DNA from: Trichomonas vaginalis G3 | Taxonomy: Eukaryota; Parabasalia; Trichomonadida; Trichomonadidae | Direction: 5' to 3' | NCBI RefSeq assembly: GCF_026262505.1 | Contig: NC_067203.1 | Span: 26,269,411 to 26,333,410 of the forward strand | Length of the DNA stretch: 64,000 nucleotides | Shown here: piece after piece, positions 12,481 to 49,730 of the stretch | How the letters are laid out: each line of letters starts with the position of its first letter | Numbering within the stretch: the stretch's first letter is position 1 | Program-made: the position numbers and the translations under genes | The notes under the pieces: generated by a model | Told to the model about the DNA's origin: nothing | Databases searched by the model: none | What the model saw: the letters and a program-made list of their open reading frames with translations, nothing else

Positions 12481-12542
12481 ATTATGCAGCTGCTTCTTTT
12501 CTTCATCAATTCCTCTTCACCCTGGAGCTCCTCAGCTTTATA

Positions 12543-22838: not shown

Positions 22839-22932
22839 GAATGAAATCTTCTGAAAAATAATATCACATAAACTCATATTATTTTCTAATATATAACTAT
22901 TTTATATAAAAATCAAATTCAATGATCTTAAA

Positions 22933-23675
22933 AGCGAATGATAAACCTCAAAATTTACGAATATAATGAGTGGGAATATAATGCTTATCTATCATAAAAC
23001 CATATGAAATATCAATTTTTGCTTTACGCCTAATTTTTGACGACAATTAGCAAAAAATGTTAAATGTTAACACTCAGTCCATTTGAATATGAAAAATAAA
23101 ATTGACTTTGATTAAATGTTTTTATTTATCATGCAATTCTTCTTGCGACCAAAGATTTGAATAAAATTTCAAAAAAAAAGATAGCTTAAAAAATAATACA
23201 CGGTAGTGTTTACTAATAGATGAATAGTATATAAATTCTATTAAAATGGATTTGATCCAAAAAAATATATAAAATTTGATCATAAATAAATCGTTTTAAA
23301 TTACTTCTTCATTTAAATTATAACAATTATTTTTGGTTTTATATTTTTTTGGATCAAATCCATTTTAATAGAATTTATATACTATTCATCTATTAGAAAC
23401 ACTACCGTATATTATTTTTTAAGCTATCTTATTTTTTGAACTTTTATTCAAATCTTTGGTCGCAAGAAGAATTGCATGATAAATAAAAACATTTAATCAA
23501 AGTCAATTTTATTTTTCATATTCAAATGGACTGAGTGTTAACATTTAACATTTTTTGCTAATTGTCGTCAAAAATTAGGCGTAAAGCAAAAATTGATATT
23601 TCATATGGTTTTATGATAGATAAGCATTATATTCCCACTCATTATATTCGTAAATTTTGAGGCTTATCCTTCGCT
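22933..23675. mobile_element. foldback element (~335-bp arms)
   Basis: The left arm, from AGCGAATGATAAACCTC, is mirrored by the right arm ending GAGGCTTATCCTTCGCT, around a central ~70 bp. It has no coding capacity. It lies exactly at the left border of the first palindromic element (GTTATAGACC begins at 23676). The corresponding right border (30371-30395) lacks it, so the empty-site sequence can be read there. Confidence 0.8.
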
Positions 23676-24255
23676 GTTATAGACCGAAAATAGATTTTTT
23701 CGGTTTTCTCTTCAAATAATTGAAAGAATGATACTATTATAGGTTTATTATATTATATAGCATATACTCATGCTATAGCCGAAAATTATAAGTTTTGAGA
23801 AGATTGAATATAACACAAATAAATTTGAATGTAAGTTAAATTGCTTGTTGTTTTTAATAGCTATTTAATGAGAAATCCAATATTGCAAAATTCAAATTGA
23901 ATGATTGAAAGAACAGAAAAAGTCATTCTTTTCAATTTCGAATATGTTTCATTGTATTTATAATTATATGGCAAATAAGATATTTAAACTTGATTTTTGA
24001 AGGGAAATTCACAAAATTGAATGAATTCAAATAATTTTTATTCAAAAATAAACTAGTTATTTGAGTTTAATACTAATTATCTATTCAAACTACAAAGTTT
24101 GTAATTTAAAATATTTTGTGAGATCAGATTGAATTAATTCAAGGTTCTTTTTAATTAATATTAATGACCATATTACGCATTTTCGAACATTCTAAACCAA
24201 ATATATAAAAATGGGAGACGAATGTTAAATTTGCTAGACATGGGGGAGTTGTCTG

Positions 24256-24860
24256 CAAAGTTTTAGCTCTTATCTCTAACAAAAAATTAATTTTTTAAAA
24301 AAATGACCGAATACGTTTCACAGCGAAAAAAATAAAAGGCAAGATAGAATTTTCTAGACATAAAGAAGTTGTTTACCGAGTTTTAGCTCTTATCTCTAAA
24401 AAAATTAATTTTTAAAAAAATGACCGAATACGTTTCACAGCGAGAAAAAATAAAAGGCAAGATAGAATTTTCTAGACATAAAGAAGTTGTTTACCGAGTT
24501 TTAGCTCTTATCTCTAACAAAAAATTAATTTTTAAAAAAATGACCGAATACGTTTCACAGCGAGAAAAAAATAAAAGGCAAGATAGAATTTTCTAGACAT
24601 AAAGAAGTTGTTTACCGAGTTTTAGCTCTTATCTCTAACAAAAAATTAATTTTTAAAAAAATGACCGAATACGTTTCACAGCGAGAAAAAAATAAAAGGC
24701 AAGATAGAATTTTCTAGACATAAAGAAGTTGTTTACCGAGTTTTAGCTCTTATCTCTAACAAAAAATTAATTTTTAAAAAAATGACCGAATACGTTTCAC
24801 AGCGAGAAAAAAATAAAAGGCAAGATAGAATTTTCTAGACATAAAGAAGTTGTCTACCAA
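24256..24860. repeat. ~120-bp VNTR, P1 left arm (5 copies)
   Basis: Unit contains TTTTAGCTCTTATCTCTAAC, an A/T block, GACCGAATACGTTTCACAGC and GACATAAAGAAGTTGTTTAC. Five copies by counting CACAGCGA. The first copy has the boundary variant TTGTCTGCAAAG and the last TTGTCTACCAAGTG. Confidence 0.9.
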
Positions 24861-25271
24861 GTGTCAGCTGTTACTTCTTCTCAATACTGATATAAAATAA
24901 AAATCTTTATTATTTATTTAACCTTTATTGTTTCATTAAACTTCATTTATTTTATATTATAGTTTTATTCTTTTAGCTACTTGTAAACTAATCTAATTTT
25001 ATATCATCATTTTACCGGATTATTCTTCAGTACATCGATTGTGTATCTAAAATAATATCATTATCCTTATTCTGTTTTTTCCAAAATTCTTTTAAATATC
25101 TTTTTTGGTTAGATTACTTTATACTTTTTACTTTTATTTTTTAATTTCAAAAAAAAAATTTGGTGATTGTTCTATTCTGTTACAATGTGCATTATCATAT
25201 TCTAATGAATTATTCATTACATACATTTAAAAAAACTTGTTAAAAATGAAATTAAAAAATTATGTTTATTA

Positions 25272-26138
25272 TTACGCTGTGAATGTGTCAACAGCGGTCA
25301 TGCCTGTATCTGTATCCCATATTTGCCACAACCTTTCTGTATCTGCATTTGTGTATTTCGGTTTCAGCTGATACATTTGATTTGGCGTGTAATTTGTTCC
25401 AGTTAATGGATTAATTGGGAGATCTTCATGCGGTGTGTTATTATTGTACTCCCAAATAAAGGCAGGAATAGCCTGAATGCTTTGGCAGCGCTCCAATGTC
25501 GGCCAGAATCTCTCAATCTTCCCATTTTGGTAGGGAGAATGAGAGTCTGTATGCCGCCATTGGACGCCCCAAAGATCAAGTAGATCTTGAAAGGCGCCCC
25601 TATTTTCTGAACCGTTGTCGGTCCAGAAACAATAAGGGGCGCCAAATTCAATGAAGGCGGAAGCCGCAACGTTCGCTGTCGTCGCTGCCAGCATATCTGG
25701 TATTTGTATACACGCTAGGACTTTGCGGCTAAAATCGTCGATTATGCCATAAATATACTGGCCACGAACACCCCTAAAATAATGAACATCTGCGTGCCAG
25801 ATAAGATTGGGTGAAAGCGCCCAATATCTTACTGCTGTTTCTGGCCCGGCATGCTCTAATCGCGTCTTGGTGAAATGATTTTCTTTGAAGTATCTGCGTA
25901 CTTCTCTATAAGATAAATCAATTTGTTGTATCATAAGACGAAATGGTGGAAGTGAACTCAAAATAAGAGTAATTAGGTTATTTTGCCGACCAAATATATT
26001 TACAAGGCAAAATATCATATTACATGTCAACCTATTATCAGTATGTTTTGATAAAAAAAATTTATCAAATATCATATTAAAATTAACATCTATATCTATA
26101 TCAATATCTACACTATAAATTTTTTTATTCAATATCAT
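25272..26138 (-). CDS. rve-type DDE integrase/transposase, copy A
   Basis: 288 codons from ATG 26138; a TTG extends it by three codons. The N-terminal ~75 residues are AT-biased and have no known fold. Next comes a helix-turn-helix-like stretch (LSYREVRRYFKENHFTKTR) and then an integrase core: WHAD117VHYF, GIIDDFSRKVLACI, FWTD174NGSE and GKIE209RFW. 34 residues lie between the second D and the E. The C-terminal part (FIWEYNNNTPHEDLP...TPNQMY) resembles the tail of bacterial IS3/IS481-type transposases and of Ginger-like integrases. It would catalyse strand transfer for the palindromic element. Protein identical to the other full-length copies in the window. Confidence 0.85.
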   Translation of the reverse strand: MILNKKIYSVDIDIDIDVNFNMIFDKFFLSKHTDNRLTCNMIFCLVNIFGRQNNLITLILSSLPPFRLMIQQIDLSYREVRRYFKENHFTKTRLEHAGPETAVRYWALSPNLIWHADVHYFRGVRGQYIYGIIDDFSRKVLACIQIPDMLAATTANVAASAFIEFGAPYCFWTDNGSENRGAFQDLLDLWGVQWRHTDSHSPYQNGKIERFWPTLERCQSIQAIPAFIWEYNNNTPHEDLPINPLTGTNYTPNQMYQLKPKYTNADTERLWQIWDTDTGMTAVDTFTA

Positions 26139-27299
26139 AGATTTCAAAAATTTATTTCAATTTTAAATTAATTTATGGTTTTCATCAAAATTGTTTTTTA
26201 TTAAAAAGCATGTTTCACAATTTTTACGGTTTCTTTCAAAAGTTATAAAAAGAGAGTCAATAAGAAATTTCAACGCTTCAAGAAGGAATCAAAGAAATTG
26301 ACGAAGTTCCAGAATTTTATTCAACAATTCTTAATCAATTAACAAAAACTATACCGAAACTTATCTTACCATCCAAATCAAATCACATTACATACGGAAT
26401 AAACATTTAATCTTTTACCATTAAAATTATATTTATACGTTATTTAATTTTTTACGTCTAAGTTGAATAGGATAATAGCCGAAGATATAAAGTAACTATA
26501 GTTTACAAGCTAAGGAACAAATCAGCATTGAAACTAAAAAATAACGTATTTGAATAATTTCGTAAAAAATTAGAATTACTCGATATTAAGCATATTGCTT
26601 TTCTATCATATATGCTTATATTCTACAATAGTGTTACCAAACATCGGGCAACATCATACGTATAATACAACTTTTTCGTACTTCTTTATCGAATTTAAAT
26701 AGAACTAAGTTTTTATTTTAAATAAAAGAGAAATAATTCTAATTTATAATCTCATTATTAATTTATTCTCATTTTAATATTTCATCGATTTTTTATTATC
26801 GATATTCAATACAAATGAATTCATATTATAATAGTATCTAGTATAACTAGGTATTCTATCACAGTATTTCTTCAATTTATTATAATATTTCAGCATTTTT
26901 TAGTTTCAATGCTGATTTGTTCCTTAGCTTGTAAACTATAGTTACTTTATATCTTCGGCTATTATCCTATTCAACTTAGACGTAAAAAAATTAAATAACG
27001 TATAAATATAATTTTAATGGTAAAAGATTAAATGTTTATTCCGTATGTAATGTGATTTGATTTGGATGGTAAGATAAGTTTCGGTATAGTTTTTGTTAAT
27101 TGATTAAGAATTGTTGAATAAAATTCTGGAACTTCGTCAATTTCTTTGATTCCTTCTTGAAGCGTTGAAATTTCTTATTGACTCTCTTTTTATAACTTTT
27201 GAAAGAAACCGTAAAAATTGTGAAACATGCTTTTTAATAAAAAACAATTTTGATGAAAACCATAAATTAATTTAAAATTGAAATAAATTTTTGAAATCT

Positions 27300-28166
27300 A
27301 TGATATTGAATAAAAAAATTTATAGTGTAGATATTGATATAGATATAGATGTTAATTTTAATATGATATTTGATAAATTTTTTTTATCAAAACATACTGA
27401 TAATAGGTTGACATGTAATATGATATTTTGCCTTGTAAATATATTTGGTCGGCAAAATAACCTAATTACTCTTATTTTGAGTTCACTTCCACCATTTCGT
27501 CTTATGATACAACAAATTGATTTATCTTATAGAGAAGTACGCAGATACTTCAAAGAAAATCATTTCACCAAGACGCGATTAGAGCATGCCGGGCCAGAAA
27601 CAGCAGTAAGATATTGGGCGCTTTCACCCAATCTTATCTGGCACGCAGATGTTCATTATTTTAGGGGTGTTCGTGGCCAGTATATTTATGGCATAATCGA
27701 CGATTTTAGCCGCAAAGTCCTAGCGTGTATACAAATACCAGATATGCTGGCAGCGACGACAGCGAACGTTGCGGCTTCCGCCTTCATTGAATTTGGCGCC
27801 CCTTATTGTTTCTGGACCGACAACGGTTCAGAAAATAGGGGCGCCTTTCAAGATCTACTTGATCTTTGGGGCGTCCAATGGCGGCATACAGACTCTCATT
27901 CTCCCTACCAAAATGGGAAGATTGAGAGATTCTGGCCGACATTGGAGCGCTGCCAAAGCATTCAGGCTATTCCTGCCTTTATTTGGGAGTACAATAATAA
28001 CACACCGCATGAAGATCTCCCAATTAATCCATTAACTGGAACAAATTACACGCCAAATCAAATGTATCAGCTGAAACCGAAATACACAAATGCAGATACA
28101 GAAAGGTTGTGGCAAATATGGGATACAGATACAGGCATGACCGCTGTTGACACATTCACAGCGTAA
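27300..28166 (+). CDS. rve-type DDE integrase/transposase, copy B
   Basis: Inverted duplicate of the gene at 25272-26138, with identical protein and all three catalytic acids. It keeps the T8 run at about 27378 that is T7 in the plus-strand copies of P2 and P3, so the full 288-residue frame is open. ATG 27300 is preferred over the upstream TTG. The start codons of the divergent pair are ~1.16 kb apart and the spacer holds no other gene. Confidence 0.85.
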   Translation: MILNKKIYSVDIDIDIDVNFNMIFDKFFLSKHTDNRLTCNMIFCLVNIFGRQNNLITLILSSLPPFRLMIQQIDLSYREVRRYFKENHFTKTRLEHAGPETAVRYWALSPNLIWHADVHYFRGVRGQYIYGIIDDFSRKVLACIQIPDMLAATTANVAASAFIEFGAPYCFWTDNGSENRGAFQDLLDLWGVQWRHTDSHSPYQNGKIERFWPTLERCQSIQAIPAFIWEYNNNTPHEDLPINPLTGTNYTPNQMYQLKPKYTNADTERLWQIWDTDTGMTAVDTFTA

Positions 28167-28574
28167 TAATAAACATAATTTTTTAATTTCATTTTTAACA
28201 AGTTTTTTTAAATGTATGTAATGAATAATTCATTAGAATATGATAATGCACATTGTAACAGAATAGAACAATCACCAAATTTTTTTTTTGAAATTAAAAA
28301 ATAAAAGTAAAAAGTATAAAGTAATCTAACCAAAAAAGATATTTAAAAGAATTTTGGAAAAAACAGAATAAGGATAATGATATTATTTTAGATACACAAT
28401 CGATGTACTGAAGAATAATCCGGTAAAATGATGATATAAAATTAGATTAGTTTACAAGTAGCTAAAAGAATAAAACTATAATATAAAATAAATGAAGTTT
28501 AATGAAACAATAAAGGTTAAATAAATAATAAAGATTTTTATTTTATATCAGTATTGAGAAGAAGTAACAGCTGA

Positions 28575-29800
28575 CACTTGGTAGACAACTTCTTTATGTC
28601 TAGAAAATTCTATCTTGCCTTTTATTTTTTTCTCGCTGTGAAACGTATTCGGTCATTTTTTTAAAAATTAATTTTTTGTTAGAGATAAGAGCTAAAACTC
28701 GGTAAACAACTTCTTTATGTCTAGAAAATTCTATCTTGCCTTTTATTTTTTTCTCGCTGTGAAACGTATTCGGTCATTTTTTTAAAAATTAATTTTTTGT
28801 TAGAGATAAGAGCTAAAACTCGGTAAACAACTTCTTTATGTCTAGAAAATTCTATCTTGCCTTTTATTTTTTTCTCGCTGTGAAACGTATTCGGTCATTT
28901 TTTTAAAAATTAATTTTTTGTTAGAGATAAGAGCTAAAACTCGGTAAACAACTTCTTTATGTCTAGAAAATTCTATCTTGCCTTTTATTTTTTTCTCGCT
29001 GTGAAACGTATTCGGTCATTTTTTTAAAAATTAATTTTTTGTTAGAGATAAGAGCTAAAACTCGGTAAACAACTTCTTTATGTCTAGAAAATTCTATCTT
29101 GCCTTTTATTTTTTTCTCGCTGTGAAACGTATTCGGTCATTTTTTTAAAAATTAATTTTTTGTTAGAGATAAGAGCTAAAACTCGGTAAACAACTTCTTT
29201 ATGTCTAGAAAATTCTATCTTGCCTTTTATTTTTTTCTCGCTGTGAAACGTATTCGGTCATTTTTTTAAAAATTAATTTTTTGTTAGAGATAAGAGCTAA
29301 AACTCGGTAAACAACTTCTTTATGTCTAGAAAATTCTATCTTGCCTTTTATTTTTTTCTCGCTGTGAAACGTATTCGGTCATTTTTTTAAAAATTAATTT
29401 TTTGTTAGAGATAAGAGCTAAAACTCGGTAAACAACTTCTTTATGTCTAGAAAATTCTATCTTGCCTTTTATTTTTTTCTCGCTGTGAAACGTATTCGGT
29501 CATTTTTTTAAAAATTAATTTTTTGTTAGAGATAAGAGCTAAAACTCGGTAAACAACTTCTTTATGTCTAGAAAATTCTATCTTGCCTTTTATTTTTTTC
29601 TCGCTGTGAAACGTATTCGGTCATTTTTTTAAAAATTAATTTTTTGTTAGAGATAAGAGCTAAAACTCGGTAAACAACTTCTTTATGTCTAGAAAATTCT
29701 ATCTTGCCTTTTATTTTTTTCTCGCTGTGAAACGTATTCGGTCATTTTTTTAAAAATTAATTTTTTGTTAGAGATAAGAGCTAAAACTTTGCAGACAACT
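28575..29800. repeat. ~121-bp VNTR, P1 right arm (10 copies)
   Basis: Reverse-complement orientation of the left-arm VNTR. Ten copies by counting CTCGCTGTGAAACG, with a very regular 121-bp period. The outer boundary has the same variant (TTTGCAGACAACTC) as the left arm. Confidence 0.9.
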
Positions 29801-30791
29801 CCCCCATGTCTAGCAAATTTAACATTCGTCTCCCATTTTTATATATTTGGTTTAGAATGTTCGAAAATGCGTAATATGGTCATTAATATTAATTAAAAAG
29901 AACCTTGAATTAATTCAATCTGATCTCACAAAATATTTTAAATTACAAACTTTGTAGTTTGAATAGATAATTAGTATTAAACTCAAATAACTAGTTTATT
30001 TTTGAATAAAAATTATTTGAATTCATTCAATTTTGTGAATTTCCCTTCAAAAATCAAGTTTAAATATCTTATTTGCCATATAATTATAAATACAATGAAA
30101 CATATTCGAAATTGAAAAGAATGACTTTTTCTGTTCTTTCAATCATTCAATTTGAATTTTGCAATATTGGATTTCTCATTAAATAGCTATTAAAAACAAC
30201 AAGCAATTTAACTTACATTCAAATTTATTTGTGTTATATTCAATCTTCTCAAAACTTATAATTTTCGGCTATAGCATGAGTATATGCTATATAATATAAT
30301 AAACCTATAATAGTATCATTCTTTCAATTATTTGAAGAGAAAACCGAAAAAATCTATTTTCGGTCTATAACAAGGTTTATCCTTCGCTTTTAAGATCATT
30401 GAATTTGATTTTTACATAAAATAGTTATATATTAGAAAATAATATGAGTTTATGTGATATTATTTTTCAGAAGATTTTGTGTTCTTATTCAAAATTTTAT
30501 TTTTTTTATTCAAAAGAATCCTTACAAAATATACATTTACTTTAATTAATATTTAAAAACGTGCTCTATCAAAAGTTCCAAAAATTCAATATTTTAGCTT
30601 TTCTGAGGTGTCACTTTTGATGAATTTCTGTTTACAACAGTTCATTCAGATTTTTTTCGTGAACCGAAATGACACGATGACGAAACCACTATACTTAGAT
30701 TTGGTGACTACCTTATATAAAAACGATATGTGGTGTTTGGCCGGACGATAACCTCAAAAGATATGAATTGTGCACAGGTTCGATTGTTCCG

Positions 30792-31561
30792 TACCGAAAT
30801 GCATCACTAGAAAAGTGACAAAAAGTGACACTTACTCTTATTTTGTGCGGCAATTTTTCTAAGTTATTTTGTTAAGCTAAATATGTTATATATCAAATCA
30901 GCTTTATAAATATTATAGAAAAGTTTATTTATTTTTATTTTTAATTATTATTATTATTATTTTTTTAAATTAAAAGAAAACATTAGAATTATATGGATAT
31001 ATTTAAATTAATTATAAAAATAAAATTGAATATATTGAAGTTTGAGTTTATAGGTATACAAATTTTAGAGGCATTTTGGCTGAGAACTATGGTCTGCGAG
31101 GTACATAGATAGAATCAGTACCTCGCAGACTATAGTTCTCTATATGGCGCCGAAAATTTTTGGTGAAATGTCGTCGCATTTCACCAAAAATTTTTCGGCG
31201 CCATAGGAAGAATTGGAGGGTGTGAGATACTATTACATGCTATAGTACTCACACCCTCCAATTCTTAGCCAAAACGGCTAAAAATTGCTCACAATTTCAA
31301 CAATTGTGAGCAATTTTCAGCCATTTTGGCTGAGAACTATGGTCTGCGAGGTACATGGATAGAATCAGTACCTCGCAGACTATAGTTCTCTATATGGCGC
31401 CCAAAAAAAAATTTATGATTGTTTTTTATCAAATCTTATCCATATTATTCTATTAATGTTAATTATATTTTATCAATTATATTTTTTTAAATAATAAACA
31501 CAAAATCCACTAATTTAAAATTGGCGCCAAATGTCACTTTTGCTAGTGATGCATTTCGGTA
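30792..31561. mobile_element. TA-flanked MITE carrying a stem-loop array (S1)
   Basis: Ends TACCGAAATGCATCACTAG and CTAGTGATGCATTTCGGTA are inverted over ~30 bp and bounded by TA on each side, as in Tc1/mariner-type insertions. It has no transposase. The hairpin array 31071-31402 fills its centre. Identical copies occur at 41326-42097 and 53341-54111. Confidence 0.7.
31071..31402. repeat. stem-loop array, five hairpins (S1-1)
   Basis: Consecutive hairpins: H1 (TCTGCGAGGTAC/GTACCTCGCAGA), H2 (GGCGCCGAAAATTTTTGG/CCAAAAATTTTTCGGCGCC), H3 (AATTGGAGGGTGTGAG/CTCACACCCTCCAATT), H4 (AGCCAAAACGGCT... with an ATTGCTCACAATT stem), then H1 again and a half H2. Stems are 18-30 bp and nearly perfect. Confidence 0.85.
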
Positions 31562-31765
31562 TGATATAGTGACAACTTTACGTGTCAGATTTTATGAAAA
31601 TAAGGTATTTATCACAAATATATAATCAATATAATTATATTATAGAAGGCTATTTAATAAATCTATATTTATTATAAAATGATATTTAAAAAAATATGTA
31701 TAATTATTGAATTAATTTTTGATAAGGAGTCAAAAAATTTTTGACAAAATTGAAATATATTTAAG

Positions 31766-31962
31766 CTAAGAATTGGTGGTGTGAGATACTATTTCATGCA
31801 ATAGTACTCACACCCTTCAATTCTTCCTATGGCGTCGAGAAAATTTTGGTGAAATGCGACGACATTTCGCCAAAATTTCTCGACGCCATATAGAGAACTA
31901 TAGTCTGCGAGGTACTGATTCTATCTATGTACCTCGCAGGCTATAGTCCCCAGCCAAAATGG
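31766..31962. repeat. stem-loop array, three hairpins (S1-2)
   Basis: Same modules in reverse order: H3 (GGTGTGAG/CTCACACC), H2 variant (GGCGTCGAGAAAATTTTGG stem), H1 (CTGCGAGGTAC/GTACCTCGCAG), ending in the CAGCCAAAATGG half of H4. Confidence 0.8.
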
Positions 31963-32407
31963 TTAAAAATTGTTGTGCATGAAAAATAGCATGACTTCAC
32001 TTCTGATAAAAAGTGACAGTATTTGACAGTGTTTGACATCTATTTGTCATATTTGAAAAATGGAGAATAATGATGTAAGGTATACACTAATTAAAATTAT
32101 TTGAGATGAAAATTTGAAGTGAAAATAAAATTTTATTTTTTTTAAAAAAAATCATTAATATGTGATGTTTTAAATTTGTTATTATTAATTAATATCTGAA
32201 ACTATTGAATTATAACAGTTTATATGTTCTCAATTTAAAAAAAATTGTGAAGAATTTATATTTTTGGAGAAGGGTGTTTAACATTTGTGAGTGAGAATGC
32301 AAGTAGAAGTTTGGTGTTTTAAGGCTAAGTTAATATAGATTTGCTATTGCTATATATGTGAATATGTTGTGTTATAATACAAGATATAAAAATATATTAT
32401 TAAAATT

Positions 32408-32605
32408 TTCGACGCCATATAGAGAACTATAGTCTGCGAGGTACTGATTCTATTTATGTGCCTCGCAGACCGTAGTTCTCAGCCAAAATGGCTAAAAAAT
32501 GGGTGCAATGTAAAAAATTGCACCCAATTTTTAGCCATTTTGGCTAGGAATTGGAGGGTGTGAGTACTATCGTTTGTAATAGTTTCTCACACCCTCTAAT
32601 TCTTC
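32408..32605. repeat. stem-loop array, H1-H4-H3 (S1-3)
   Basis: Half H2 (TTTCGACGCCATA), then H1, then an H4-type hairpin with a different inner stem (GGGTGCAAT/ATTGCACCC), then H3 (GGAGGGTGTGAG/CTCACACCCTC). The order again follows the cyclic series read backwards. Confidence 0.8.
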
Positions 32606-34664
32606 GTATATACACATTATAAAATCATTCAAAACGATACACATATTTTCTAAAAAACAATCCGAAAATTTTATTATGATAATTTATTAAACTTTAATCT
32701 AATTCTTAAACCAATTGAATATATCGAATAACACAATTAATTGAATACATCTTTTGAAATTGAAAAGAAAAATTAATAAAAATAAAAAACTGAACTTTAT
32801 TAAATAAAGAAAAGGTATGAAAAGAAGTTTGAAAACAATAAAAAAATAATGTGATTGTTGATAAACGATTTTTATTTCGACAATTATTAGAAAGGATTAT
32901 GATAGAGTTTGTAAAATATGTTCGATCTGTGTATGTCAAATCGTGCCAAGTTAAGTATACTAGGGACACAAATTGAGACGAGAAAAGCAAATTGAGAGGA
33001 AAAAACCGTTCAAAATGTTGTAAACTTTTGAATTTTAGCCCAAAAATCGCGTTCTTATTTTTGACCTATTCAATTAATAATTTTAGTTTAAATAAAAAAT
33101 AATTGTTTAGTCTAACGACGACATTCTTTTGGAATAGGAAACAAGATGATTTAAAGGTGCACCCGTATATACGTTTATTTGAGAGGAGGAGGATTACCCT
33201 CTCAATTTTGAGGGATTCGTTAGTTTATTTTCTCGATGAATATGCAATAAAATTTGATTTTTACCTTATCAATATACTTCATATAATATACACATGTTCA
33301 TGTAAAAACTTTTTTCCAAAATCCTCAGGAATTAAGGGATTTTTGAATTTTAATAGGGTTGCTAGATTCCCGACGATAGGTGTCTTGGAAGATTTGCCTG
33401 GTGTCATCATAGTGTCTTTAAATCAATAATTTTATTTTCGAGTTAGTTTTATCGATTTTTCAATAAAAAACATTTCTAAAACAAGAAAATAAAACGATAA
33501 AATATTTATATTTTATATAAGGATCTTATATATTTAAAATAAATATCATTTTATTTTTTTCATTGGTGTCTGTCAAACCATAATACACTATTCAAAAATT
33601 CAATGTGTCTTGCGGCTTCAAAAGACACCTTCAAATTGAATGATAGCACAGACACTATTGAGTTTTACCCATTTTATTTAGTTTTTACCCTTTTTATTTT
33701 TAAGAATTAATGAATAAAACAGCCGTTTTGCTATAACCTCAATCACTTTTATTTATTATTTTAAATATTATTTAATTTTATTATTTGAATAGGCAAACTT
33801 ATATTTGAGAAGCTCAATTTGAGACCACTTAATACATTGAAATATCATAAATATTGAAATATTAAAAAGTGTATTTCAAAATATTGAAATTATAAAAATT
33901 TATAATACTGAAATTGAGACAAATTAATAAATTCAATGTGTTTTTTTGAAATAACTCTCAAATATTATTTTTTTGTTTATTTAATGATGAATAAATATGA
34001 TTGCTTTAGTCAATCATAAAAACTAATTCAAGTTTAAAATAATGAAAGGATAATTTAATCGTTTTTTAAAATACAATTATTTTTTGTTATAGACCGAAAA
34101 TAGATTTTTTCGGTTTTCTCTTCAAATAATTGAAAGAATGATACTATTATAGGTTTATTATATTATATAGCATATACTCATGCTATAGCCGAAAATTATA
34201 AGTTTTGAGAAGATTGAATATAACACAAATAAATTTGAATGTAAGTTAAATTGCTTGTTGTTTTTAATAGCTATTTAATGAGAAATCCAATATTGCAAAA
34301 TTCAAATTGAATGATTGAAAGAACAGAAAAAGTCATTCTTTTCAATTTCGAATATGTTTCATTGTATTTATAATTATATGGCAAATAAGATATTTAAACT
34401 TGATTTTTGAAGGGAAATTCACAAAATTGAATGAATTCAAATAATTTTTATTCAAAAATAAACTAGTTATTTGAGTTTAATACTAATTATCTATTCAAAC
34501 TACAAAGTTTGTAATTTAAAATATTTTGTGAGATCAGATTGAATTAATTCAAGGTTCTTTTTAATTAATATTAATGACCATATTACGCATTTTCGAACAT
34601 TCTAAACCAAATATATAAAAATGGGAGACGAATGTTAAATTTGCTAGACATGGGGGAGTTGTCT

Positions 34665-35275
34665 GCAAAGTTTTAGCTCTTATCTCTAACAAAAAATTAA
34701 TTTTTAAAAAAATGACCGAATACGTTTCACAGCGAGAAAAAAATAAAAGGCAAGATAGAATTTTCTAGACATAAAGAAGTTGTTTACCGAGTTTTAGCTC
34801 TTATCTCTAACAAAAAATTAATTTTTAAAAAAATGACCGAATACGTTTCACAGCGAGAAAAAAATAAAAGGCAAGATAGAATTTTCTAGACATAAAGAAG
34901 TTGTTTACCGAGTTTTAGCTCTTATCTCTAACAAAAAATTAATTTTTAAAAAAATGACCGAATACGTTTCACAGCGAAAAAAAATAAAAGGCAAGATAGA
35001 ATTTTCTAGACATAAAGAAGTTGTTTACCGAGTTTTAGCTCTTATCTCTAAAAAAAATTAATTTTTAAAAAAATGACCGAATACGTTTCACAGCGAGAAA
35101 AAAATAAAAGGCAAGATAGAATTTTCTAGACATAAAGAAGTTGTTTACCGAGTTTTAGCTCTTATCTCTAACAAAAAATTAATTTTTAAAAAAATGACCG
35201 AATACGTTTCACAGCGAGAAAAAAATAAAAGGCAAGATAGAATTTTCTAGACATAAAGAAGTTGTCTACCAAGTG
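34665..35275. repeat. ~120-bp VNTR, P2 left arm (5 copies)
   Basis: Same unit as in P1; five copies by counting CACAGCGA. Small A-run length differences between units. Confidence 0.88.
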
Positions 35276-35683
35276 TCAGCTGTTACTTCTTCTCAATACT
35301 GATATAAAATAAAAATCTTTATTATTTATTTAACCTTTATTGTTTCATTAAACTTCATTTATTTTATATTATAGTTTTATTCTTTTAGCTACTTGTAAAC
35401 TAATCTAATTTTATATCATCATTTTACCGGATTATTCTTCAGTACATCGATTGTGTATCTAAAATAATATCATTATCCTTATTCTGTTTTTTCCAAAATT
35501 CTTTTAAATATCTTTTTTGGTTAGATTACTTTATACTTTTTACTTTTATTTTTTAATTTCAAAAAAAAAATTTGGTGATTGTTCTATTCTGTTACAATGT
35601 GCATTATCATATTCTAATGAATTATTCATTACATACATTTAAAAAAACTTGTTAAAAATGAAATTAAAAAATTATGTTTATTA

Positions 35684-36550
35684 TTACGCTGTGAATGTGT
35701 CAACAGCGGTCATGCCTGTATCTGTATCCCATATTTGCCACAACCTTTCTGTATCTGCATTTGTGTATTTCGGTTTCAGCTGATACATTTGATTTGGCGT
35801 GTAATTTGTTCCAGTTAATGGATTAATTGGGAGATCTTCATGCGGTGTGTTATTATTGTACTCCCAAATAAAGGCAGGAATAGCCTGAATGCTTTGGCAG
35901 CGCTCCAATGTCGGCCAGAATCTCTCAATCTTCCCATTTTGGTAGGGAGAATGAGAGTCTGTATGCCGCCATTGGACGCCCCAAAGATCAAGTAGATCTT
36001 GAAAGGCGCCCCTATTTTCTGAACCGTTGTCGGTCCAGAAACAATAAGGGGCGCCAAATTCAATGAAGGCGGAAGCCGCAACGTTCGCTGTCGTCGCTGC
36101 CAGCATATCTGGTATTTGTATACACGCTAGGACTTTGCGGCTAAAATCGTCGATTATGCCATAAATATACTGGCCACGAACACCCCTAAAATAATGAACA
36201 TCTGCGTGCCAGATAAGATTGGGTGAAAGCGCCCAATATCTTACTGCTGTTTCTGGCCCGGCATGCTCTAATCGCGTCTTGGTGAAATGATTTTCTTTGA
36301 AGTATCTGCGTACTTCTCTATAAGATAAATCAATTTGTTGTATCATAAGACGAAATGGTGGAAGTGAACTCAAAATAAGAGTAATTAGGTTATTTTGCCG
36401 ACCAAATATATTTACAAGGCAAAATATCATATTACATGTCAACCTATTATCAGTATGTTTTGATAAAAAAAATTTATCAAATATCATATTAAAATTAACA
36501 TCTATATCTATATCAATATCTACACTATAAATTTTTTTATTCAATATCAT
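35684..36550 (-). CDS. rve-type DDE integrase/transposase, copy C
   Basis: Full-length 288-residue frame from ATG 36550, protein identical to copies A and B, with the D117/D174/E209 triad present. It reads outward from the P2 centre and is paired with the frameshifted copy at 37713-38578. No local promoter motif that I can name. Confidence 0.85.
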   Translation of the reverse strand: MILNKKIYSVDIDIDIDVNFNMIFDKFFLSKHTDNRLTCNMIFCLVNIFGRQNNLITLILSSLPPFRLMIQQIDLSYREVRRYFKENHFTKTRLEHAGPETAVRYWALSPNLIWHADVHYFRGVRGQYIYGIIDDFSRKVLACIQIPDMLAATTANVAASAFIEFGAPYCFWTDNGSENRGAFQDLLDLWGVQWRHTDSHSPYQNGKIERFWPTLERCQSIQAIPAFIWEYNNNTPHEDLPINPLTGTNYTPNQMYQLKPKYTNADTERLWQIWDTDTGMTAVDTFTA

Positions 36551-37712
36551 AGATTTCAAAAATTTATTTCAATTTTAAATTAATTTATGGTTTTCATCAA
36601 AATTGTTTTTTATTAAAAAGCATGTTTCACAATTTTTACGGTTTCTTTCAAAAGTTATAAAAAGAGAGTCAATAAGAAATTTCAACGCTTCAAGAAGGAA
36701 TCAAAGAAATTGACGAAGTTCCAGAATTTTATTCAACAATTCTTAATCAATTAACAAAAACTATACCGAAACTTATCTTACCATCCAAATCAAATCACAT
36801 TACATACGGAATAAACATTTAATCTTTTACCATTAAAATTATATTTATACGTTATTTAATTTTTTTACGTCTAAGTTGAATAGGATAATAGCCGAAGATA
36901 TAAAGTAACTATAGTTTACAAGCTAAGGAACAAATCAGCATTGAAACTAAAAAATAACGTATTTGAATAATTTCGTAAAAAATTAGAATTACTCGATATT
37001 AAGCATATTGCTTTTCTATCATATATGCTTATATTCTACAATAGTGTTACCAAACATCGGGCAACATCATACGTATAATACAACTTTTTCGTACTTCTTT
37101 ATCGAATTTAAATAGAACTAAGTTTTTATTTTAAATAAAAGAGAAATAATTCTAATTTATAATCTCATTATTAATTTATTCTCATTTTAATATTTCATCG
37201 ATTTTTTATTATCGATATTCAATACAAATGAATTCATATTATAATAGTATCTAGTATAACTAGGTATTCTATCACAGTATTTCTTCAATTTATTATAATA
37301 TTTCAGCATTTTTTAGTTTCAATGCTGATTTGTTCCTTAGCTTGTAAACTATAGTTACTTTATATCTTCGGCTATTATCCTATTCAACTTAGACGTAAAA
37401 AAATTAAATAACGTATAAATATAATTTTAATGGTAAAAGATTAAATGTTTATTCCGTATGTAATGTGATTTGATTTGGATGGTAAGATAAGTTTCGGTAT
37501 AGTTTTTGTTAATTGATTAAGAATTGTTGAATAAAATTCTGGAACTTCGTCAATTTCTTTGATTCCTTCTTGAAGCGTTGAAATTTCTTATTGACTCTCT
37601 TTTTATAACTTTTGAAAGAAACCGTAAAAATTGTGAAACATGCTTTTTAATAAAAAACAATTTTGATGAAAACCATAAATTAATTTAAAATTGAAATAAA
37701 TTTTTGAAATCT

Positions 37713-38578
37713 ATGATATTGAATAAAAAAATTTATAGTGTAGATATTGATATAGATATAGATGTTAATTTTAATATGATATTTGATAAATTTTTTTATC
37801 AAAACATACTGATAATAGGTTGACATGTAATATGATATTTTGCCTTGTAAATATATTTGGTCGGCAAAATAACCTAATTACTCTTATTTTGAGTTCACTT
37901 CCACCATTTCGTCTTATGATACAACAAATTGATTTATCTTATAGAGAAGTACGCAGATACTTCAAAGAAAATCATTTCACCAAGACGCGATTAGAGCATG
38001 CCGGGCCAGAAACAGCAGTAAGATATTGGGCGCTTTCACCCAATCTTATCTGGCACGCAGATGTTCATTATTTTAGGGGTGTTCGTGGCCAGTATATTTA
38101 TGGCATAATCGACGATTTTAGCCGCAAAGTCCTAGCGTGTATACAAATACCAGATATGCTGGCAGCGACGACAGCGAACGTTGCGGCTTCCGCCTTCATT
38201 GAATTTGGCGCCCCTTATTGTTTCTGGACCGACAACGGTTCAGAAAATAGGGGCGCCTTTCAAGATCTACTTGATCTTTGGGGCGTCCAATGGCGGCATA
38301 CAGACTCTCATTCTCCCTACCAAAATGGGAAGATTGAGAGATTCTGGCCGACATTGGAGCGCTGCCAAAGCATTCAGGCTATTCCTGCCTTTATTTGGGA
38401 GTACAATAATAACACACCGCATGAAGATCTCCCAATTAATCCATTAACTGGAACAAATTACACGCCAAATCAAATGTATCAGCTGAAACCGAAATACACA
38501 AATGCAGATACAGAAAGGTTGTGGCAAATATGGGATACAGATACAGGCATGACCGCTGTTGACACATTCACAGCGTAA
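37713..38578 (+). pseudogene. rve-type DDE integrase, copy D, N-terminal frameshift
   Basis: Sequence matches copy B except for one T lost from a T8 run near 37790, which breaks the frame at about codon 30. The downstream frame is open from ATG 37832 and still contains the whole core with all three catalytic acids. A shorter, ~248-residue protein could therefore still be made. The same deletion is present in copy F. Confidence 0.8.
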
Positions 38579-38989
38579 TAATAAACATAATTTTTTAATT
38601 TCATTTTTAACAAGTTTTTTTAAATGTATGTAATGAATAATTCATTAGAATATGATAATGCACATTGTAACAGAATAGAACAATCACCAAATTTTTTTTT
38701 GAAATTAAAAAATAAAAGTAAAAAGTATAAAGTAATCTAACCAAAAAAGATATTTAAAAGAATTTTGGAAAAAACAGAATAAGGATAATGATATTATTTT
38801 AGATACACAATCGATGTACTGAAGAATAATCCGGTAAAATGATGATATAAAATTAGATTAGTTTACAAGTAGCTAAAAGAATAAAACTATAATATAAAAT
38901 AAATGAAGTTTAATGAAACAATAAAGGTTAAATAAATAATAAAGATTTTTATTTTATATCAGTATTGAGAAGAAGTAACAGCTGACACT

Positions 38990-40330
38990 TGGTAGACAAC
39001 TTCTTTATGTCTAGAAAATTCTATCTTGCCTTTTATTTTTTTCTCGCTGTGAAACGTATTCGGTCATTTTTTTAAAAATTAATTTTTTGTTAGAGATAAG
39101 AGCTAAAACTCGGTAAACAACTTCTTTATGTCTAGAAAATTCTATCTTGCCTTTTATTTTTTCTCGCTGTGAAACGTATTCGGTCATTTTTTTAAAAATT
39201 AATTTTTTGTTAGAGATAAGAGCTAAAACTCGGTAAACAACTTCTTTATGTCTAGAAAATTCTATCTTGCCTTTTATTTTTTTCTCGCTGTGAAACGTAT
39301 TCGGTCATTTTTTTAAAAATTAATTTTTTGTTAGAGATAAGAGCTAAAACTCGGTAAACAACTTCTTTATGTCTAGAAAATTCTATCTTGCCTTTTATTT
39401 TTTTCTCGCTGTGAAACGTATTCGGTCATTTTTTTAAAAATTAATTTTTTGTTAGAGATAAGAGCTAAAACTCGGTAAACAACTTCTTTATGTCTAGAAA
39501 ATTCTATCTTGCCTTTTATTTTTTTCTCGCTGTGAAACGTATTCGGTCATTTTTTTAAAAATTAATTTTTGTTAGAGATAAGAGCTAAAACTCGGTAAAC
39601 AACTTCTTTATGTCTAGAAAATTCTATCTTGCCTTTTATTTTTTTCTCGCTGTGAAACGTATTCGGTCATTTTTTTAAAAATTAATTTTTTGTTAGAGAT
39701 AAGAGCTAAAACTCGGTAAACAACTTCTTTATGTCTAGAAAATTCTATCTTGCCTTTTATTTTTTTCTCGCTGTGAAACGTATTCGGTCATTTTTTTAAA
39801 AATTAATTTTTTGTTAGAGATAAGAGCTAAAACTCGGTAAACAACTTCTTTATGTCTAGAAAATTCTATCTTGCCTTTTATTTTTTTCTCGCTGTGAAAC
39901 GTATTCGGTCATTTTTTTAAAAAATTAATTTTTTGTTAGAGATAAGAGCTAAAACTCGGTAAACAACTTCTTTATGTCTAGAAAATTCTATCTTGCCTTT
40001 TATTTTTTTCTCGCTGTGAAACGTATTCGGTCATTTTTTTTAAAAATTAATTTTTTGTTAGAGATAAGAGCTAAAACTCGGTAAACAACTTCTTTATGTC
40101 TAGAAAATTCTATCTTGCCTTTTATTTTTTTCTCGCTGTGAAACGTATTCGGTCATTTTTTTAAAAAATTATTTTTTGTTAGAGATAAGAGCTAAAACTC
40201 GGTAAACAACTTCTTTATGTCTAGAAAATTCTATCTTGCCTTTTATTTTTTTCTCGCTGTGAAACGTATTCGGTCATTTTTTTAAAAATTAATTTTTTGT
40301 TAGAGATAAGAGCTAAAACTTTGCAGACAA
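38990..40330. repeat. ~121-bp VNTR, P2 right arm (11 copies)
   Basis: Eleven copies by counting CTCGCTGTG. Single-base differences in A/T runs mark individual units. Confidence 0.9.
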
Positions 40331-41325
40331 CTCCCCATGTCTAGCAAATTTAACATTCGTCTCCCATTTTTATATATTTGGTTTAGAATGTTCGAAAATG
40401 CGTAATATGGTCATTAATATTAATTAAAAAGAACCTTGAATTAATTCAATCTGATCTCACAAAATATTTTAAATTACAAACTTTGTAGTTTGAATAGATA
40501 ATTAGTATTAAACTCAAATAACTAGTTTATTTTTGAATAAAAATTATTTGAATTCATTCAATTTTGTGAATTTCCCTTCAAAAATCAAGTTTAAATATCT
40601 TATTTGCCATATAATTATAAATACAATGAAACATATTCGAAATTGAAAAGAATGACTTTTTCTGTTCTTTCAATCATTCAATTTGAATTTTGCAATATTG
40701 GATTTCTCATTAAATAGCTATTAAAAACAACAAGCAATTTAACTTACATTCAAATTTATTTGTGTTATATTCAATCTTCTCAAAACTTATAATTTTCGGC
40801 TATAGCATGAGTATATGCTATATAATATAATAAACCTATAATAGTATCATTCTTTCAATTATTTGAAGAGAAAACCGAAAAAATCTATTTTCGGTCTATA
40901 ACAAGGTTTATCCTTCGCTTTTAAGATCATTGAATTTGATTTTTATAATAAAATAGTTATATATTAGAAAATAATATGAGTTTATGTGATATTATTTTTC
41001 AGAAGATTTTGTGTTCTTATTCAAAATTTTATTTTTTTTATTCAAAAGAATCCTTACAAAATATACATTTACTTTAATTAATATTTAAAAACGTGCTCTA
41101 TCAAAAGTTCCAAAAAATTCAATATTTTAGCTTTTCTGAGGTGTCACTTTTGATGAATTTCTGTTTACAACAGTTTCATTCAGATTTTTTTCGTGAACCG
41201 AAATGACACGATGACGAAACCACTATACTTAGATTTGGTGACTACCTTATATAAAAACGATATGTGGTGTTTGGCCGGACGATAACCTCAAAAGATATGA
41301 ATTGTGCACAGGTTCGATTGTTCCG

Positions 41326-45506: not shown

Positions 45507-46794
45507 TTCCCGACGATAGGTGTCTTGGAAGATTTGCCTGGTGTCATCATAGTGTCTTTAAATCAAAAATTTTATTTTCGAGTTAGTTTTATCGATTTTT
45601 CAATAAAAAACATTTCTAAAACAAGAAAATAAAACGATAAAATATTTATATTTTATATAAGGATCTTATATATTTAAAATAAATATCATTTTATTTTTTT
45701 CATTGGTGTCTGTCAAACCATAATACACTATTCAAAAATTCAATGTGTCTTGCGGCTTCAAAAGACACCTTCAAATTGAATGATAGCACAGACACTATTG
45801 AGTTTTACCCATTTTATTTAGTTTTTACCCTTTTTATTTTTAAGAATTAATGAATAAAACAGCCGTTTTGCTATAACCTCAATCACTTTTATTTATTATT
45901 TTAAATATTATTTAATTTTATTATTTGAATAGGCAAACTTATATTTGAGAAGCTCAATTTGAGACCACTTAATACATTGAAATATCATAAATATTGAAAT
46001 ATTAAAAAGTGTATTTCAAAATATTGAAATTATAAAAATTTATAATACTGAAATTGAGACAAATTAATAAATTCAATGTTTTTTTTGAAATAACTCTCAA
46101 ATATTATTTTTTTGTTTATTTAATGATGAATAAATATGATTGCTTTAGTCAATCATAAAAACTAATTCAAGTTTAAAATAATGAAAGGATAATTTAATCG
46201 TTTTTAAAATACAATTATTTTTTTGTTATAGACGAAAATAGTTTTTTCGGTTTTCTCTTCAAATAATTGAAAGAATGATACTATTATAGGTTTATTATAT
46301 TATATAGCATATACTCATGCTATAGCCGAAAATTAAGTTTTGAGAAAATTGAAATACACAAATAAATTTGAATGTAAGTTAAATTGCTTGTTGTTTTTAA
46401 TAGCTATTTAATGAGAAATCCAATATTGCAAAATTCAAATTGAATGATTGAAAGAACAGAAAAGTCATTCTTTTCAATTTCGAATATGTTTCATTGTATT
46501 TATAATTATATGGCAAATAAGATATTTAAACTTGATTTTTTGAAGGGAAATCACAAAATTGAATGAATTCAAATAATTTTTATTCAAAAATAAACTAGTT
46601 ATTTGAGTTTAATACTAATTATCTATTCAAACTACAAAGTTTGTAATTTTAAAATATTTTGTGAGATCAGATTGAATTAATTCAAGGTTCTTTTTAATTA
46701 ATATTAATGACCATATTACGCATTTTCGAACATTCTAAACAAATAAACCAAATATATAAAATGGGAGACGAATGTTAAATTTGCTAGACATGGG

Positions 46795-47290
46795 GAGTTG
46801 TCTGCAAAGTTTTAGCTCTTATCTCTAACAAAAATTAATTTTTAAAAAAATGACGAATACGTTTCACAGCGAGAAAAAAATAAAAGGCAAGATAGAATTT
46901 TCTAGACATAAAGAAGTTGTTTACCGAGTTTTAGCTCTTATCTCTAACAAAAAATTAATTTTTAAAAAAATGACCGAATACGTTTCACAGCGAGAAAAAA
47001 ATAAAAGGCAAGATAGAATTTTCTAGACATAAAGAAGTTGTTTACCGAGTTTTAGCTCTTATCTCTAACAAAAAATTAATTTTTAAAAAAATGACCGAAT
47101 ACGTTTCACAGCGAGAAAAAAATAAAAGGCAAGATAGAATTTTCTAGACATAAAGAAGTTGTTTACCGAGTTTTAGCTCTTATCTCTAACAAAAAATTAA
47201 TTTTTAAAAAAATGACCGAATACGTTTCACAGCGAGAAAAAAATAAAAGGCAAGATAGAATTTTCTAGACATAAAGAAGTTGTCTACCAA
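46795..47290. repeat. ~120-bp VNTR, P3 left arm (4 copies)
   Basis: Four copies by counting CACAGCGA, one fewer than in P1 and P2. Confidence 0.88.
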
Positions 47291-47701
47291 GTGTCAGCTG
47301 TTACTTCTTCTCAATACTGATATAAAATAAAAATCTTTATTATTTATTTAACCTTTATTGTTTCATTAAACTTCATTTATTTTATATTATAGTTTTATTC
47401 TTTTAGCTACTTGTAAACTAATCTAATTTTATATCATCATTTTACCGGATTATTCTTCAGTACATCGATTGTGTATCTAAAATAATATCATTATCCTTAT
47501 TCTGTTTTTTCCAAAATTCTTTTAAATATCTTTTTTGGTTAGATTACTTTATACTTTTTACTTTTTTTTTTTAATTTCAAAAAAAAAATTTGGTGATTGT
47601 TCTATTCTGTTACAATGTGCATTATCATATTCTAATGAATTATTCATTACATACATTTAAAAAAACTTGTTAAAAATGAAATTAAAAAATTATGTTTATT
47701 A

Positions 47702-48568
47702 TTACGCTGTGAATGTGTCAACAGCGGTCATGCCTGTATCTGTATCCCATATTTGCCACAACCTTTCTGTATCTGCATTTGTGTATTTCGGTTTCAGCTG
47801 ATACATTTGATTTGGCGTGTAATTTGTTCCAGTTAATGGATTAATTGGGAGATCTTCATGCGGTGTGTTATTATTGTACTCCCAAATAAAGGCAGGAATA
47901 GCCTGAATGCTTTGGCAGCGCTCCAATGTCGGCCAGAATCTCTCAATCTTCCCATTTTGGTAGGGAGAATGAGAGTCTGTATGCCGCCATTGGACGCCCC
48001 AAAGATCAAGTAGATCTTGAAAGGCGCCCCTATTTTCTGAACCGTTGTCGGTCCAGAAACAATAAGGGGCGCCAAATTCAATGAAGGCGGAAGCCGCAAC
48101 GTTCGCTGTCGTCGCTGCCAGCATATCTGGTATTTGTATACACGCTAGGACTTTGCGGCTAAAATCGTCGATTATGCCATAAATATACTGGCCACGAACA
48201 CCCCTAAAATAATGAACATCTGCGTGCCAGATAAGATTGGGTGAAAGCGCCCAATATCTTACTGCTGTTTCTGGCCCGGCATGCTCTAATCGCGTCTTGG
48301 TGAAATGATTTTCTTTGAAGTATCTGCGTACTTCTCTATAAGATAAATCAATTTGTTGTATCATAAGACGAAATGGTGGAAGTGAACTCAAAATAAGAGT
48401 AATTAGGTTATTTTGCCGACCAAATATATTTACAAGGCAAAATATCATATTACATGTCAACCTATTATCAGTATGTTTTGATAAAAAAAATTTATCAAAT
48501 ATCATATTAAAATTAACATCTATATCTATATCAATATCTACACTATAAATTTTTTTATTCAATATCAT
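47702..48568 (-). CDS. rve-type DDE integrase/transposase, copy E
   Basis: Full-length frame from ATG 48568, protein identical to copies A-C, catalytic triad complete. Paired with copy F across the P3 centre. Confidence 0.85.
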   Translation of the reverse strand: MILNKKIYSVDIDIDIDVNFNMIFDKFFLSKHTDNRLTCNMIFCLVNIFGRQNNLITLILSSLPPFRLMIQQIDLSYREVRRYFKENHFTKTRLEHAGPETAVRYWALSPNLIWHADVHYFRGVRGQYIYGIIDDFSRKVLACIQIPDMLAATTANVAASAFIEFGAPYCFWTDNGSENRGAFQDLLDLWGVQWRHTDSHSPYQNGKIERFWPTLERCQSIQAIPAFIWEYNNNTPHEDLPINPLTGTNYTPNQMYQLKPKYTNADTERLWQIWDTDTGMTAVDTFTA

Positions 48569-49730
48569 AGATTTCAAAAATTTATTTCAATTTTAAATTA
48601 ATTTATGGTTTTCATCAAAATTGTTTTTTATTAAAAAGCATGTTTCACAATTTTTACGGTTTCTTTCAAAAGTTATAAAAAGAGAGTCAATAAGAAATTT
48701 CAACGCTTCAAGAAGGAATCAAAGAAATTGACGAAGTTCCAGAATTTTATTCAACAATTCTTAATCAATTAACAAAAACTATACCGAAACTTATCTTACC
48801 ATCCAAATCAAATCACATTACATACGGAATAAACATTTAATCTTTTACCATTAAAATTATATTTATACGTTATTTAATTTTTTTACGTCTAAGTTGAATA
48901 GGATAATAGCCGAAGATATAAAGTAACTATAGTTTACAAGCTAAGGAACAAATCAGCATTGAAACTAAAAAATAACGTATTTGAATAATTTCGTAAAAAA
49001 TTAGAATTACTCGATATTAAGCATATTGCTTTTCTATCATATATGCTTATATTCTACAATAGTGTTACCAAACATCGGGCAACATCATACGTATAATACA
49101 ACTTTTTCGTACTTCTTTATCGAATTTAAATAGAACTAAGTTTTTATTTTAAATAAAAGAGAAATAATTCTAATTTATAATCTCATTATTAATTTATTCT
49201 CATTTTAATATTTCATCGATTTTTTATTATCGATATTCAATACAAATGAATTCATATTATAATAGTATCTAGTATAACTAGGTATTCTATCACAGTATTT
49301 CTTCAATTTATTATAATATTTCAGCATTTTTTAGTTTCAATGCTGATTTGTTCCTTAGCTTGTAAACTATAGTTACTTTATATCTTCGGCTATTATCCTA
49401 TTCAACTTAGACGTAAAAAAATTAAATAACGTATAAATATAATTTTAATGGTAAAAGATTAAATGTTTATTCCGTATGTAATGTGATTTGATTTGGATGG
49501 TAAGATAAGTTTCGGTATAGTTTTTGTTAATTGATTAAGAATTGTTGAATAAAATTCTGGAACTTCGTCAATTTCTTTGATTCCTTCTTGAAGCGTTGAA
49601 ATTTCTTATTGACTCTCTTTTTATAACTTTTGAAAGAAACCGTAAAAATTGTGAAACATGCTTTTTAATAAAAAACAATTTTGATGAAAACCATAAATTA
49701 ATTTAAAATTGAAATAAATTTTTGAAATCT

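What the first reader, a model, noticed from the sequence alone, without database searches (positions are those of the whole stretch)
23676..30371. Giant palindromic element with two divergent integrase genes
The element is an almost perfect inverted duplication of ~3 kb, ending in GTTATAGACCGAAAATAG. Each arm carries the same rve-type DDE gene reading outward. Autonomous elements normally carry one transposase. A whole-arm inverted duplication with a complete enzyme in each arm, present three times here, points to a distinct transposon architecture (mirror element) or to a palindromic replication/recombination intermediate that became fixed. The family could be Ginger-like or an IS3/IS481-like import; this is inference.
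Basis: partly seen in the sequence, partly recalled or inferred. Interest (0 to 1): 0.8.

Follow-up and report, generated by a model that had tools for sequence, protein, structure and literature searches.

The report
Mirror-image transposon made of broken halves
In the parasite Trichomonas vaginalis, one half of a known kind of jumping gene has been copied in mirror image around a piece of a second jumping gene; the product has two good ends but two shortened enzymes, and it sits in a repeated block of DNA.

Summary
The palindrome is real: 23675-30372, arms practically identical outside a 121-bp tandem array, 352-bp spacer, 15-bp target-site duplications (14 of 15 match; a related unfilled site lies in the window). 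The genome matches T. vaginalis G3. The element belongs to IS481EU, described in 2023 (TGT..ACA ends, 15-bp duplications); ordinary copies are about 3.3 kb with one 324-residue transposase. Each arm is the right part of an ordinary copy (residues 107-324), cut by a second IS481EU-like element, X; the first 70 codons of the 288-residue ORF are X DNA. So it is a non-autonomous derivative with two right ends and two truncated transposases. The three copies are not three insertions: they are units of a tandem array best explained by two insertion sites 3.7 kb apart and unequal crossing-over (one site-1 left end and one site-2 right end in the genome; 25 arms, found only here and in five small contigs). 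Likely origin: repair of a broken left half by copying the right half through inverted homologies. Galileo of Drosophila shows the same kind of end extension; this is a larger case in another superfamily. Mobility of the palindrome itself is likely but unproved.

The parts
23675..30372 (.). Palindromic element, copy A
   Evidence: TGT..ACA ends, arms, TSD
23660..23674 (+). Left target-site duplication AGGCTTATCCTTCGC
   Evidence: 14 of 15 match to right copy; related unfilled site is the reverse complement of 22920-22960; this left junction occurs once in the genome
30373..30387 (+). Right target-site duplication AGGTTTATCCTTCGC
23675..24258 (+). Left terminal inverted repeat, non-array part
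   Evidence: 584 of 584 identical to 29789-30372
29789..30372 (-). Right terminal inverted repeat, non-array part
24259..24873 (+). 121-bp tandem array, 5.1 units
28565..29788 (-). 121-bp tandem array, 10.1 units
25272..25928 (-). Transposase 3' part (residues 107-324 of the family protein), left arm
27510..28166 (+). Transposase 3' part (residues 107-324), right arm
25929..26542 (+). Left part of element X (starts TATCATAAGACG; IS481EU-like, 4-bp TSD elsewhere)
26895..27509 (-). Inverted second copy of the left part of X
26543..26894 (+). 352-bp spacer, the loop of X's internal 263-bp inverted repeat
30373..34084 (+). 3.7-kb flank that is part of the tandem unit
   Evidence: matches the region right of copy B, there interrupted by a 1.6-kb insertion; its end joins the next element at its terminus
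34071..34084 (+). Site-2 duplication ATACAATTATTTTT left of copy B
   Evidence: same 14 bp right of the last copy in contig C82; unfilled site at 306 places
34085..40903 (.). Palindromic element, copy B
46224..52921 (.). Palindromic element, copy C (left end with single-base indels)

Best explanation
A non-autonomous, double-right-ended derivative of an IS481EU DNA transposon. SHOWN: ordinary copies have nearly identical terminal repeats (0.65-0.96 kb in the 8 compared), one 324-residue transposase and usually perfect 15-bp duplications; the palindrome holds only their right part, twice, joined to a mirrored part of element X; copy A sits between 15-bp duplications; internal copies show a second insertion site 3.7 kb away; element plus 3.7 kb is tandemly repeated. 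INFERRED: (1) X inserted in the transposase gene of an ordinary copy; (2) the left half of that copy was lost or broken, and both broken ends had inverted homology on the right (left TIR to right TIR; X arm to X arm), so gap repair or fold-back copying replaced it by a mirror copy of the right half; (3) full-length transposase from other copies moved the product in trans, which can work because the two ends of this family are almost identical; (4) unequal crossing-over between copies at sites 1 and 2 built the array.
For: Family: paper; 11 of 15 distinct end pairs with perfect 15-bp duplications; best NCBIfam model IS481, E 1.6e-24, though below its curated cut-off. Truncation. X is a separate element, with 4-bp duplications CTAC and CAAT. 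Target sites. Array; in the whole genome the site-1 left end occurs once (copy A) and the site-2 right end once (last copy of C82), as unequal crossing-over predicts. Copying between inverted ends: within-element end identity median 99.9% (16 elements) against 99.1% between elements (480 comparisons), own partner among the nearest for 28 of 32 ends; one ordinary copy has no direct duplication and has 141 of 141 identical inverted flanks. Precedent in Galileo.
Against: No donor (ordinary copy with X at this codon) was found (0 hits at up to 3 mismatches). Step 3 is not proved: a duplication would also survive if the palindrome formed in place. The site-1 duplication has one mismatch; site 2 matches over 14 bp, and the end there has one changed base. 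4 of 15 ordinary end pairs lack the 15-bp duplication, and one of 16 elements has ends only 98.1% alike. Array size rests on one assembly with small extra contigs, two of which gave identical stretches.
Confidence: 0.72

Rival explanations
1. The palindrome formed in place at site 1 by inverted gap repair and never moved; the site-2 element was an ordinary copy later converted by its neighbour. All copies then come from crossing-over.
For: Gap repair keeps the original duplication; ends of this family do exchange sequence; all 25 X/transposase junctions found lie in this window or in five small contigs.
Against: The outermost arm at each end of the array (A left; last C82 copy right) carries the X junction, so conversion would have to reach the far arm of the site-2 element.
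Confidence: 0.25
2. Assembly artefact: fold-back or chimeric long reads produced the palindromes.
For: Palindromes and tandem arrays are error-prone; copy C has many single-base indels.
Against: A 352-bp asymmetric spacer, unequal array lengths in the arms, matching duplications at two sites and two different array-end flanks are not expected from fold-back reads.
Confidence: 0.06
3. An autonomous mirror transposon with two working enzymes.
For: The rve core is intact in both ORFs.
Against: 106 N-terminal residues missing; the ORF start is X DNA; found only at one locus and in five small contigs while single-gene copies are dispersed.
Confidence: 0.03

Closest known systems
IS481EU (Kojima & Bao 2023, PMC10045372); Banshee is probably the same, as that paper says
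   Same: IS481-like DDE transposase, TGT..ACA ends, 15-bp duplications, T. vaginalis
   Different: [quoted passage not shown] here the family has 0.65-0.96-kb TIRs with a tandem array, and the derivative is a palindrome with two truncated genes. Which numbered family it is could not be tested (supplement not available).
Galileo of Drosophila (P superfamily), extended or recombinant TIR copies (PMC4168063, PMC3573991)
   Same: Long TIRs with internal tandem repeats; end of the transposase ORF and a fragment of another element present in both TIRs; non-autonomous copies with different TSDs
   Different: Unrelated transposase; just over 0.5 kb of ORF recruited there against 0.66 kb plus 0.61 kb of X here; here all but the 352-bp spacer is mirrored and the element is tandemly amplified
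Foldback-type elements such as Tetris (PMC4079207, search listing only)
   Same: Foldback architecture with tandem repeats, by the listing
   Different: Not compared in sequence here

Membership tests
IS481EU | IS481-like DDE transposase | tested here: met
   NCBIfam IS481 best model, E 1.6e-24, 86.9 bits, below its curated cut-off of 224; Pfam rve
IS481EU | Terminal signature TNT..AYA | tested here: met
   TGT..ACA
IS481EU | TSD of about 4, 15 or 25 bp | tested here: met
   Ordinary copies: 11 of 15 distinct pairs perfect 15 bp, 4 of 15 not; palindrome: 14 of 15, site 2: 14 bp
IS481EU | One transposase protein per autonomous element | tested here: not met
   Met by the ordinary copy L039, not by the palindrome: it is a non-autonomous derivative of the family, not an autonomous member
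IS481EU | Parabasalid host | tested here: met
   Family protein named T. vaginalis G3, contig length equal to C4 of this genome
IS481EU | Position in the published tree | not tested
Ginger1/Ginger2 | 4-5 bp TSD | tested here: not met
   15 bp; lengths for Ginger from PMC10045372
Polinton/Maverick | 6-bp TSD | tested here: not met
   15 bp; length for Polinton from PMC10045372
Galileo | P-superfamily transposase | tested here: not met
   rve/IS481-like
Galileo-type TIR extension (works like) | Internal ORF and foreign-element DNA in both inverted arms | tested here: met

The most novel reading that the evidence does not exclude
The palindrome is a mobile lineage of its own: a double-right-ended IS481EU derivative that was moved at least twice in trans (sites 1 and 2), showing the birth of a foldback-like element from an ordinary transposon by inverted copying, with two copies per element of an N-terminally truncated transposase that could inhibit the family.
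Probability: 0.45. Interest if true: 0.5.

Novelty: new variant of a known kind. Interest (0 to 1): 0.36.

Why it matters
It offers a readable case of how long-armed, foldback-like transposons can arise: both inverted homologies that would guide the copying (TIR to TIR; X arm to X arm) are still visible. [quoted passage not shown] this is a larger case in an unrelated superfamily. It also shows a palindromic element inside a tandem array with units of about 10.4-14.3 kb, useful for anyone assembling T. vaginalis genomes.

Tried and rejected
Rejected: two complete enzymes; three independent insertions; Ginger or Maverick membership (duplication length). A transposase match on C5 (5696124-5696906), which one search aligned from query residue 26 and so seemed to include X codons, was fetched and is a truncated ordinary copy without X. 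Contigs C14, C81 and C56, which have one arm, looked like possible donors, but their second arm is cut by DNA like that starting at window 54220, which I take for a Maverick end. The 10.8-26-kb end pairs on C1 looked like giant elements: the two stretches read inside the 26-kb pair look Maverick-like by eye (no family search was run on them), so that one is most likely a nested insertion; the stretches read in the 16.5-kb and 10.8-kb pairs held family transposase pieces, so what enlarges them was not seen. Donor junction search negative. The AlphaFold model of the 324-residue protein (6-row alignment) has pLDDT under 50 for most of residues 1-139, so it says nothing on the N-terminal domain; Foldseek's best 50 matches are mostly retroviral integrases and intasomes. 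Rfam: 0 hits in 12000-64000. One search had an error of mine (flanks of minus-strand ends not read) and was replaced; one search crashed and was replaced. One search used 16 elements (7 of the 12 loci that had both exact ends, 8 of the 10 C1 pairs, and copy A); the two C1 pairs left out are L045 and L050 again.
Full report
OBSERVATION. The window is G000:C1:26269411-26333410 of a 180.85-Mb genome in 86 contigs. A cluster of the family's transposase is named Trichomonas vaginalis G3 and lies on a contig of 40,211,917 bases, the length of C4 here. The reported palindrome is there: arms 23675-26542 and 26895-30372 around a 352-bp spacer. Between the 121-bp array and the spacer the arms agree in 1669 of 1670 columns, the only difference being a gap, and the terminal 584 bp agree fully. 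Array lengths differ: 5.1 and 10.1 units.

WHAT FAMILY. The terminus TGTTATAGACCGAAAATAGATTTTTTCGG occurs 231 times forward and 230 times reverse in the genome (up to 3 mismatches; reversed control 0 and 0). I fetched 12 loci around good transposase matches; 7 of 12 had both exact ends, 3041-3532 bp apart, and 6 of these 7 have a perfect 15-bp duplication. On C1, 10 end pairs within 40 kb could be built from the 30 loci returned; 6 of 10 have a perfect 15-bp duplication. Two pairs occur in both sets, so 11 of 15 distinct pairs have it and 4 do not. An ordinary copy (L039) is 3296 bp with ~0.84-kb inverted ends and one ORF of at least 100 residues, 324 long. In the 8 copies compared the inverted ends run about 654-961 bp (for L045 this leaves out 141 bp of flank). 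These are the traits of IS481EU: TNT..AYA ends and ~4, ~15 or ~25-bp duplications in parabasalids (PMC10045372, parts 1-3 of 5 read). The NCBIfam model that fits best is IS481 (E 1.6e-24), below its curated cut-off.

WHAT THE ARMS HOLD. Compared with ordinary copies, each arm carries only the right part, from transposase residue 107 to the right end. The 288-residue ORF therefore starts in other DNA: residues 71-288 are transposase, residues 1-70 come from X (the alignment to the family protein, residues 67-288, has 218 of 222 identical). The rve core is kept; the N-terminal 106 residues are gone. PMC10045372 reports weak helix-turn-helix similarity for this region in the superfamily; my own Pfam scan of the 324-residue protein found only integrase-core models. 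So neither arm holds a complete enzyme.

ELEMENT X. The inner 612 bp and the spacer occur elsewhere (40 matches scored of 288 candidates; 113 matches, many partial). At C1:3828028 (L052) X is a 1612-bp element inserted in DNA like window 59555-61528, with TAT..ACA ends and a 4-bp duplication CTAC/CTAC; at C4:31469541 (L069) it has CAAT/CAAT. Locus L070 shares X's other parts and holds a 317-residue ORF with an rve match. X has an internal 263-bp inverted repeat around the 352-bp loop. In the palindrome X's left end abuts transposase codon 107, and beyond the inverted repeat X's own right part is replaced by a mirror copy of its left part.

INSERTION SITES. Left and right of copy A stand AGGCTTATCCTTCGC and AGGTTTATCCTTCGC. 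The target is itself a palindromic repeat; its other arm, in the window at 22920-22960, shows the related unfilled site (one further base change), and both flanks of A overlap on it by exactly these 15 bp. The unfilled sequence is common in the genome (1119 + 1113 places, up to 3 mismatches). Inside the array the left flank is ATACAATTATTTTT joined to the terminus (11 places at up to 2 mismatches: copy B and contigs C11, C14, C56, C81, C82; copy C has it with indels). The last copy in C82 has the right flank ATACAATTATTTTTGATGATTTGC (its terminus has one changed base), and the unfilled form of this second site occurs at 141 + 165 places. Hence two insertion sites 3.7 kb apart.

ARRAY. The X/transposase junction was found 25 times: C1 6 (all in this window), C11 3, C14 1, C56 1, C81 1, C82 13 (two letters of the pattern were mistyped, so more diverged junctions would be missed). 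By position these make 10 arm pairs and 5 single arms; three of the singles are cut by other DNA, and one lies near a contig end. The right junction with site-1 flank occurs 9 times, plus once with a 1-base change. In the whole genome the site-1 left end occurs once, at copy A, and the site-2 right end once, at the last copy of C82. One left end and one right end are what unequal crossing-over between an element at site 1 and one at site 2 would give. Copy-to-copy spacing is 10.4 and 12.0 kb in the window and 10.5-14.3 kb in C82. C14 and C81 gave identical fetched stretches and may be one sequence, so the count is uncertain.

HOW IT AROSE. In the 16 elements the two ends of one element resemble each other more than ends of other elements (median identity 99.9% of 16 within, 99.1% of 480 between; own partner among the nearest for 28 of 32 ends; the exception with 10 mismatches is L031/L032). 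So the ends are probably copied onto each other. One ordinary copy (L045) has no direct duplication; its flanks are inverted repeats, 141 of 141 identical, as if copying ran beyond the end. In the X-bearing ancestor a gap in the left half would leave two ends with inverted homology on the right half: the left TIR and X's arm. Repair from the right half gives the palindrome seen. Fold-back copying from X's inverted repeat gives the same product. I cannot tell these apart, and no donor was found. For Galileo, PMC3573991 (passages only) proposes repair of one TIR from the other with a longer tract, and PMC4168063 (abstract, passages, section 10) describes copies with transposase ORF segments and another element's fragment in both TIRs.

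FUNCTION. The element most likely moves, if at all, in trans with transposase from the dispersed ordinary copies; that its two ends are both right ends should matter little because left and right ends are nearly identical. The truncated proteins might inhibit the family; this is inference without test. Against mobility: the palindrome is known only from this array and small contigs.

LITERATURE LIMITS. Searches 'IS481EU', T. vaginalis with chromosome-scale and Maverick, 'Banshee' with Trichomonas, transposon with palindromic/inverted duplication, foldback with long TIRs, T. vaginalis with palindrom, T. vaginalis with Hi-C and TIR extension showed no description of this palindrome in the titles and abstract starts listed. 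They cover open-licence PubMed Central papers only, and long lists were shown in part.

On re-reading, the flank counts were corrected (10 of 11 right junctions, not all), two searches for the array ends were added and a C5 match that might have been an X-bearing copy was fetched and excluded.

Noticed in passing
L045, C1:10215437-10218716: An ordinary family copy with no direct duplication but 141 of 141 identical inverted flanks, as if repair copied one flank to the other side.
   Followed up: partly
C1:168703-195049, 4430753-4441545, 16214106-16230639: Family end pairs 26.3, 10.8 and 16.5 kb apart with perfect 15-bp duplications; the two stretches read inside the first look Maverick-like by eye.
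   Followed up: partly
43910-45506: A 1.6-kb insertion present between copies B and C but not between A and B, with ends TATAGATCC/GGATCTATA and an 8-bp duplication TTCCCGAC, read by eye; about 1 kb of it is also next to X on C5 (L068).
   Followed up: partly
22926-23683: The site-1 target is a palindromic repeat; its sequence around the insertion point occurs over 2200 times in the genome, and among the 100 places listed many are inverted pairs about 730 bp apart.
   Followed up: partly
1-12560: A 12.5-kb array of imperfect 21-bp units that keeps long ORFs open in several frames on both strands.
   Followed up: no
54220-64000: Maverick-like region starting in the right flank of copy C, with a phage-tail-like protein and a borderline HNH match.
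   Followed up: no
G000:C4:10370000-10775000: A dense cluster of X-related spacer sequence with repeats 253 bp apart; several copies lie about 14-15 kb from the next.
   Followed up: no
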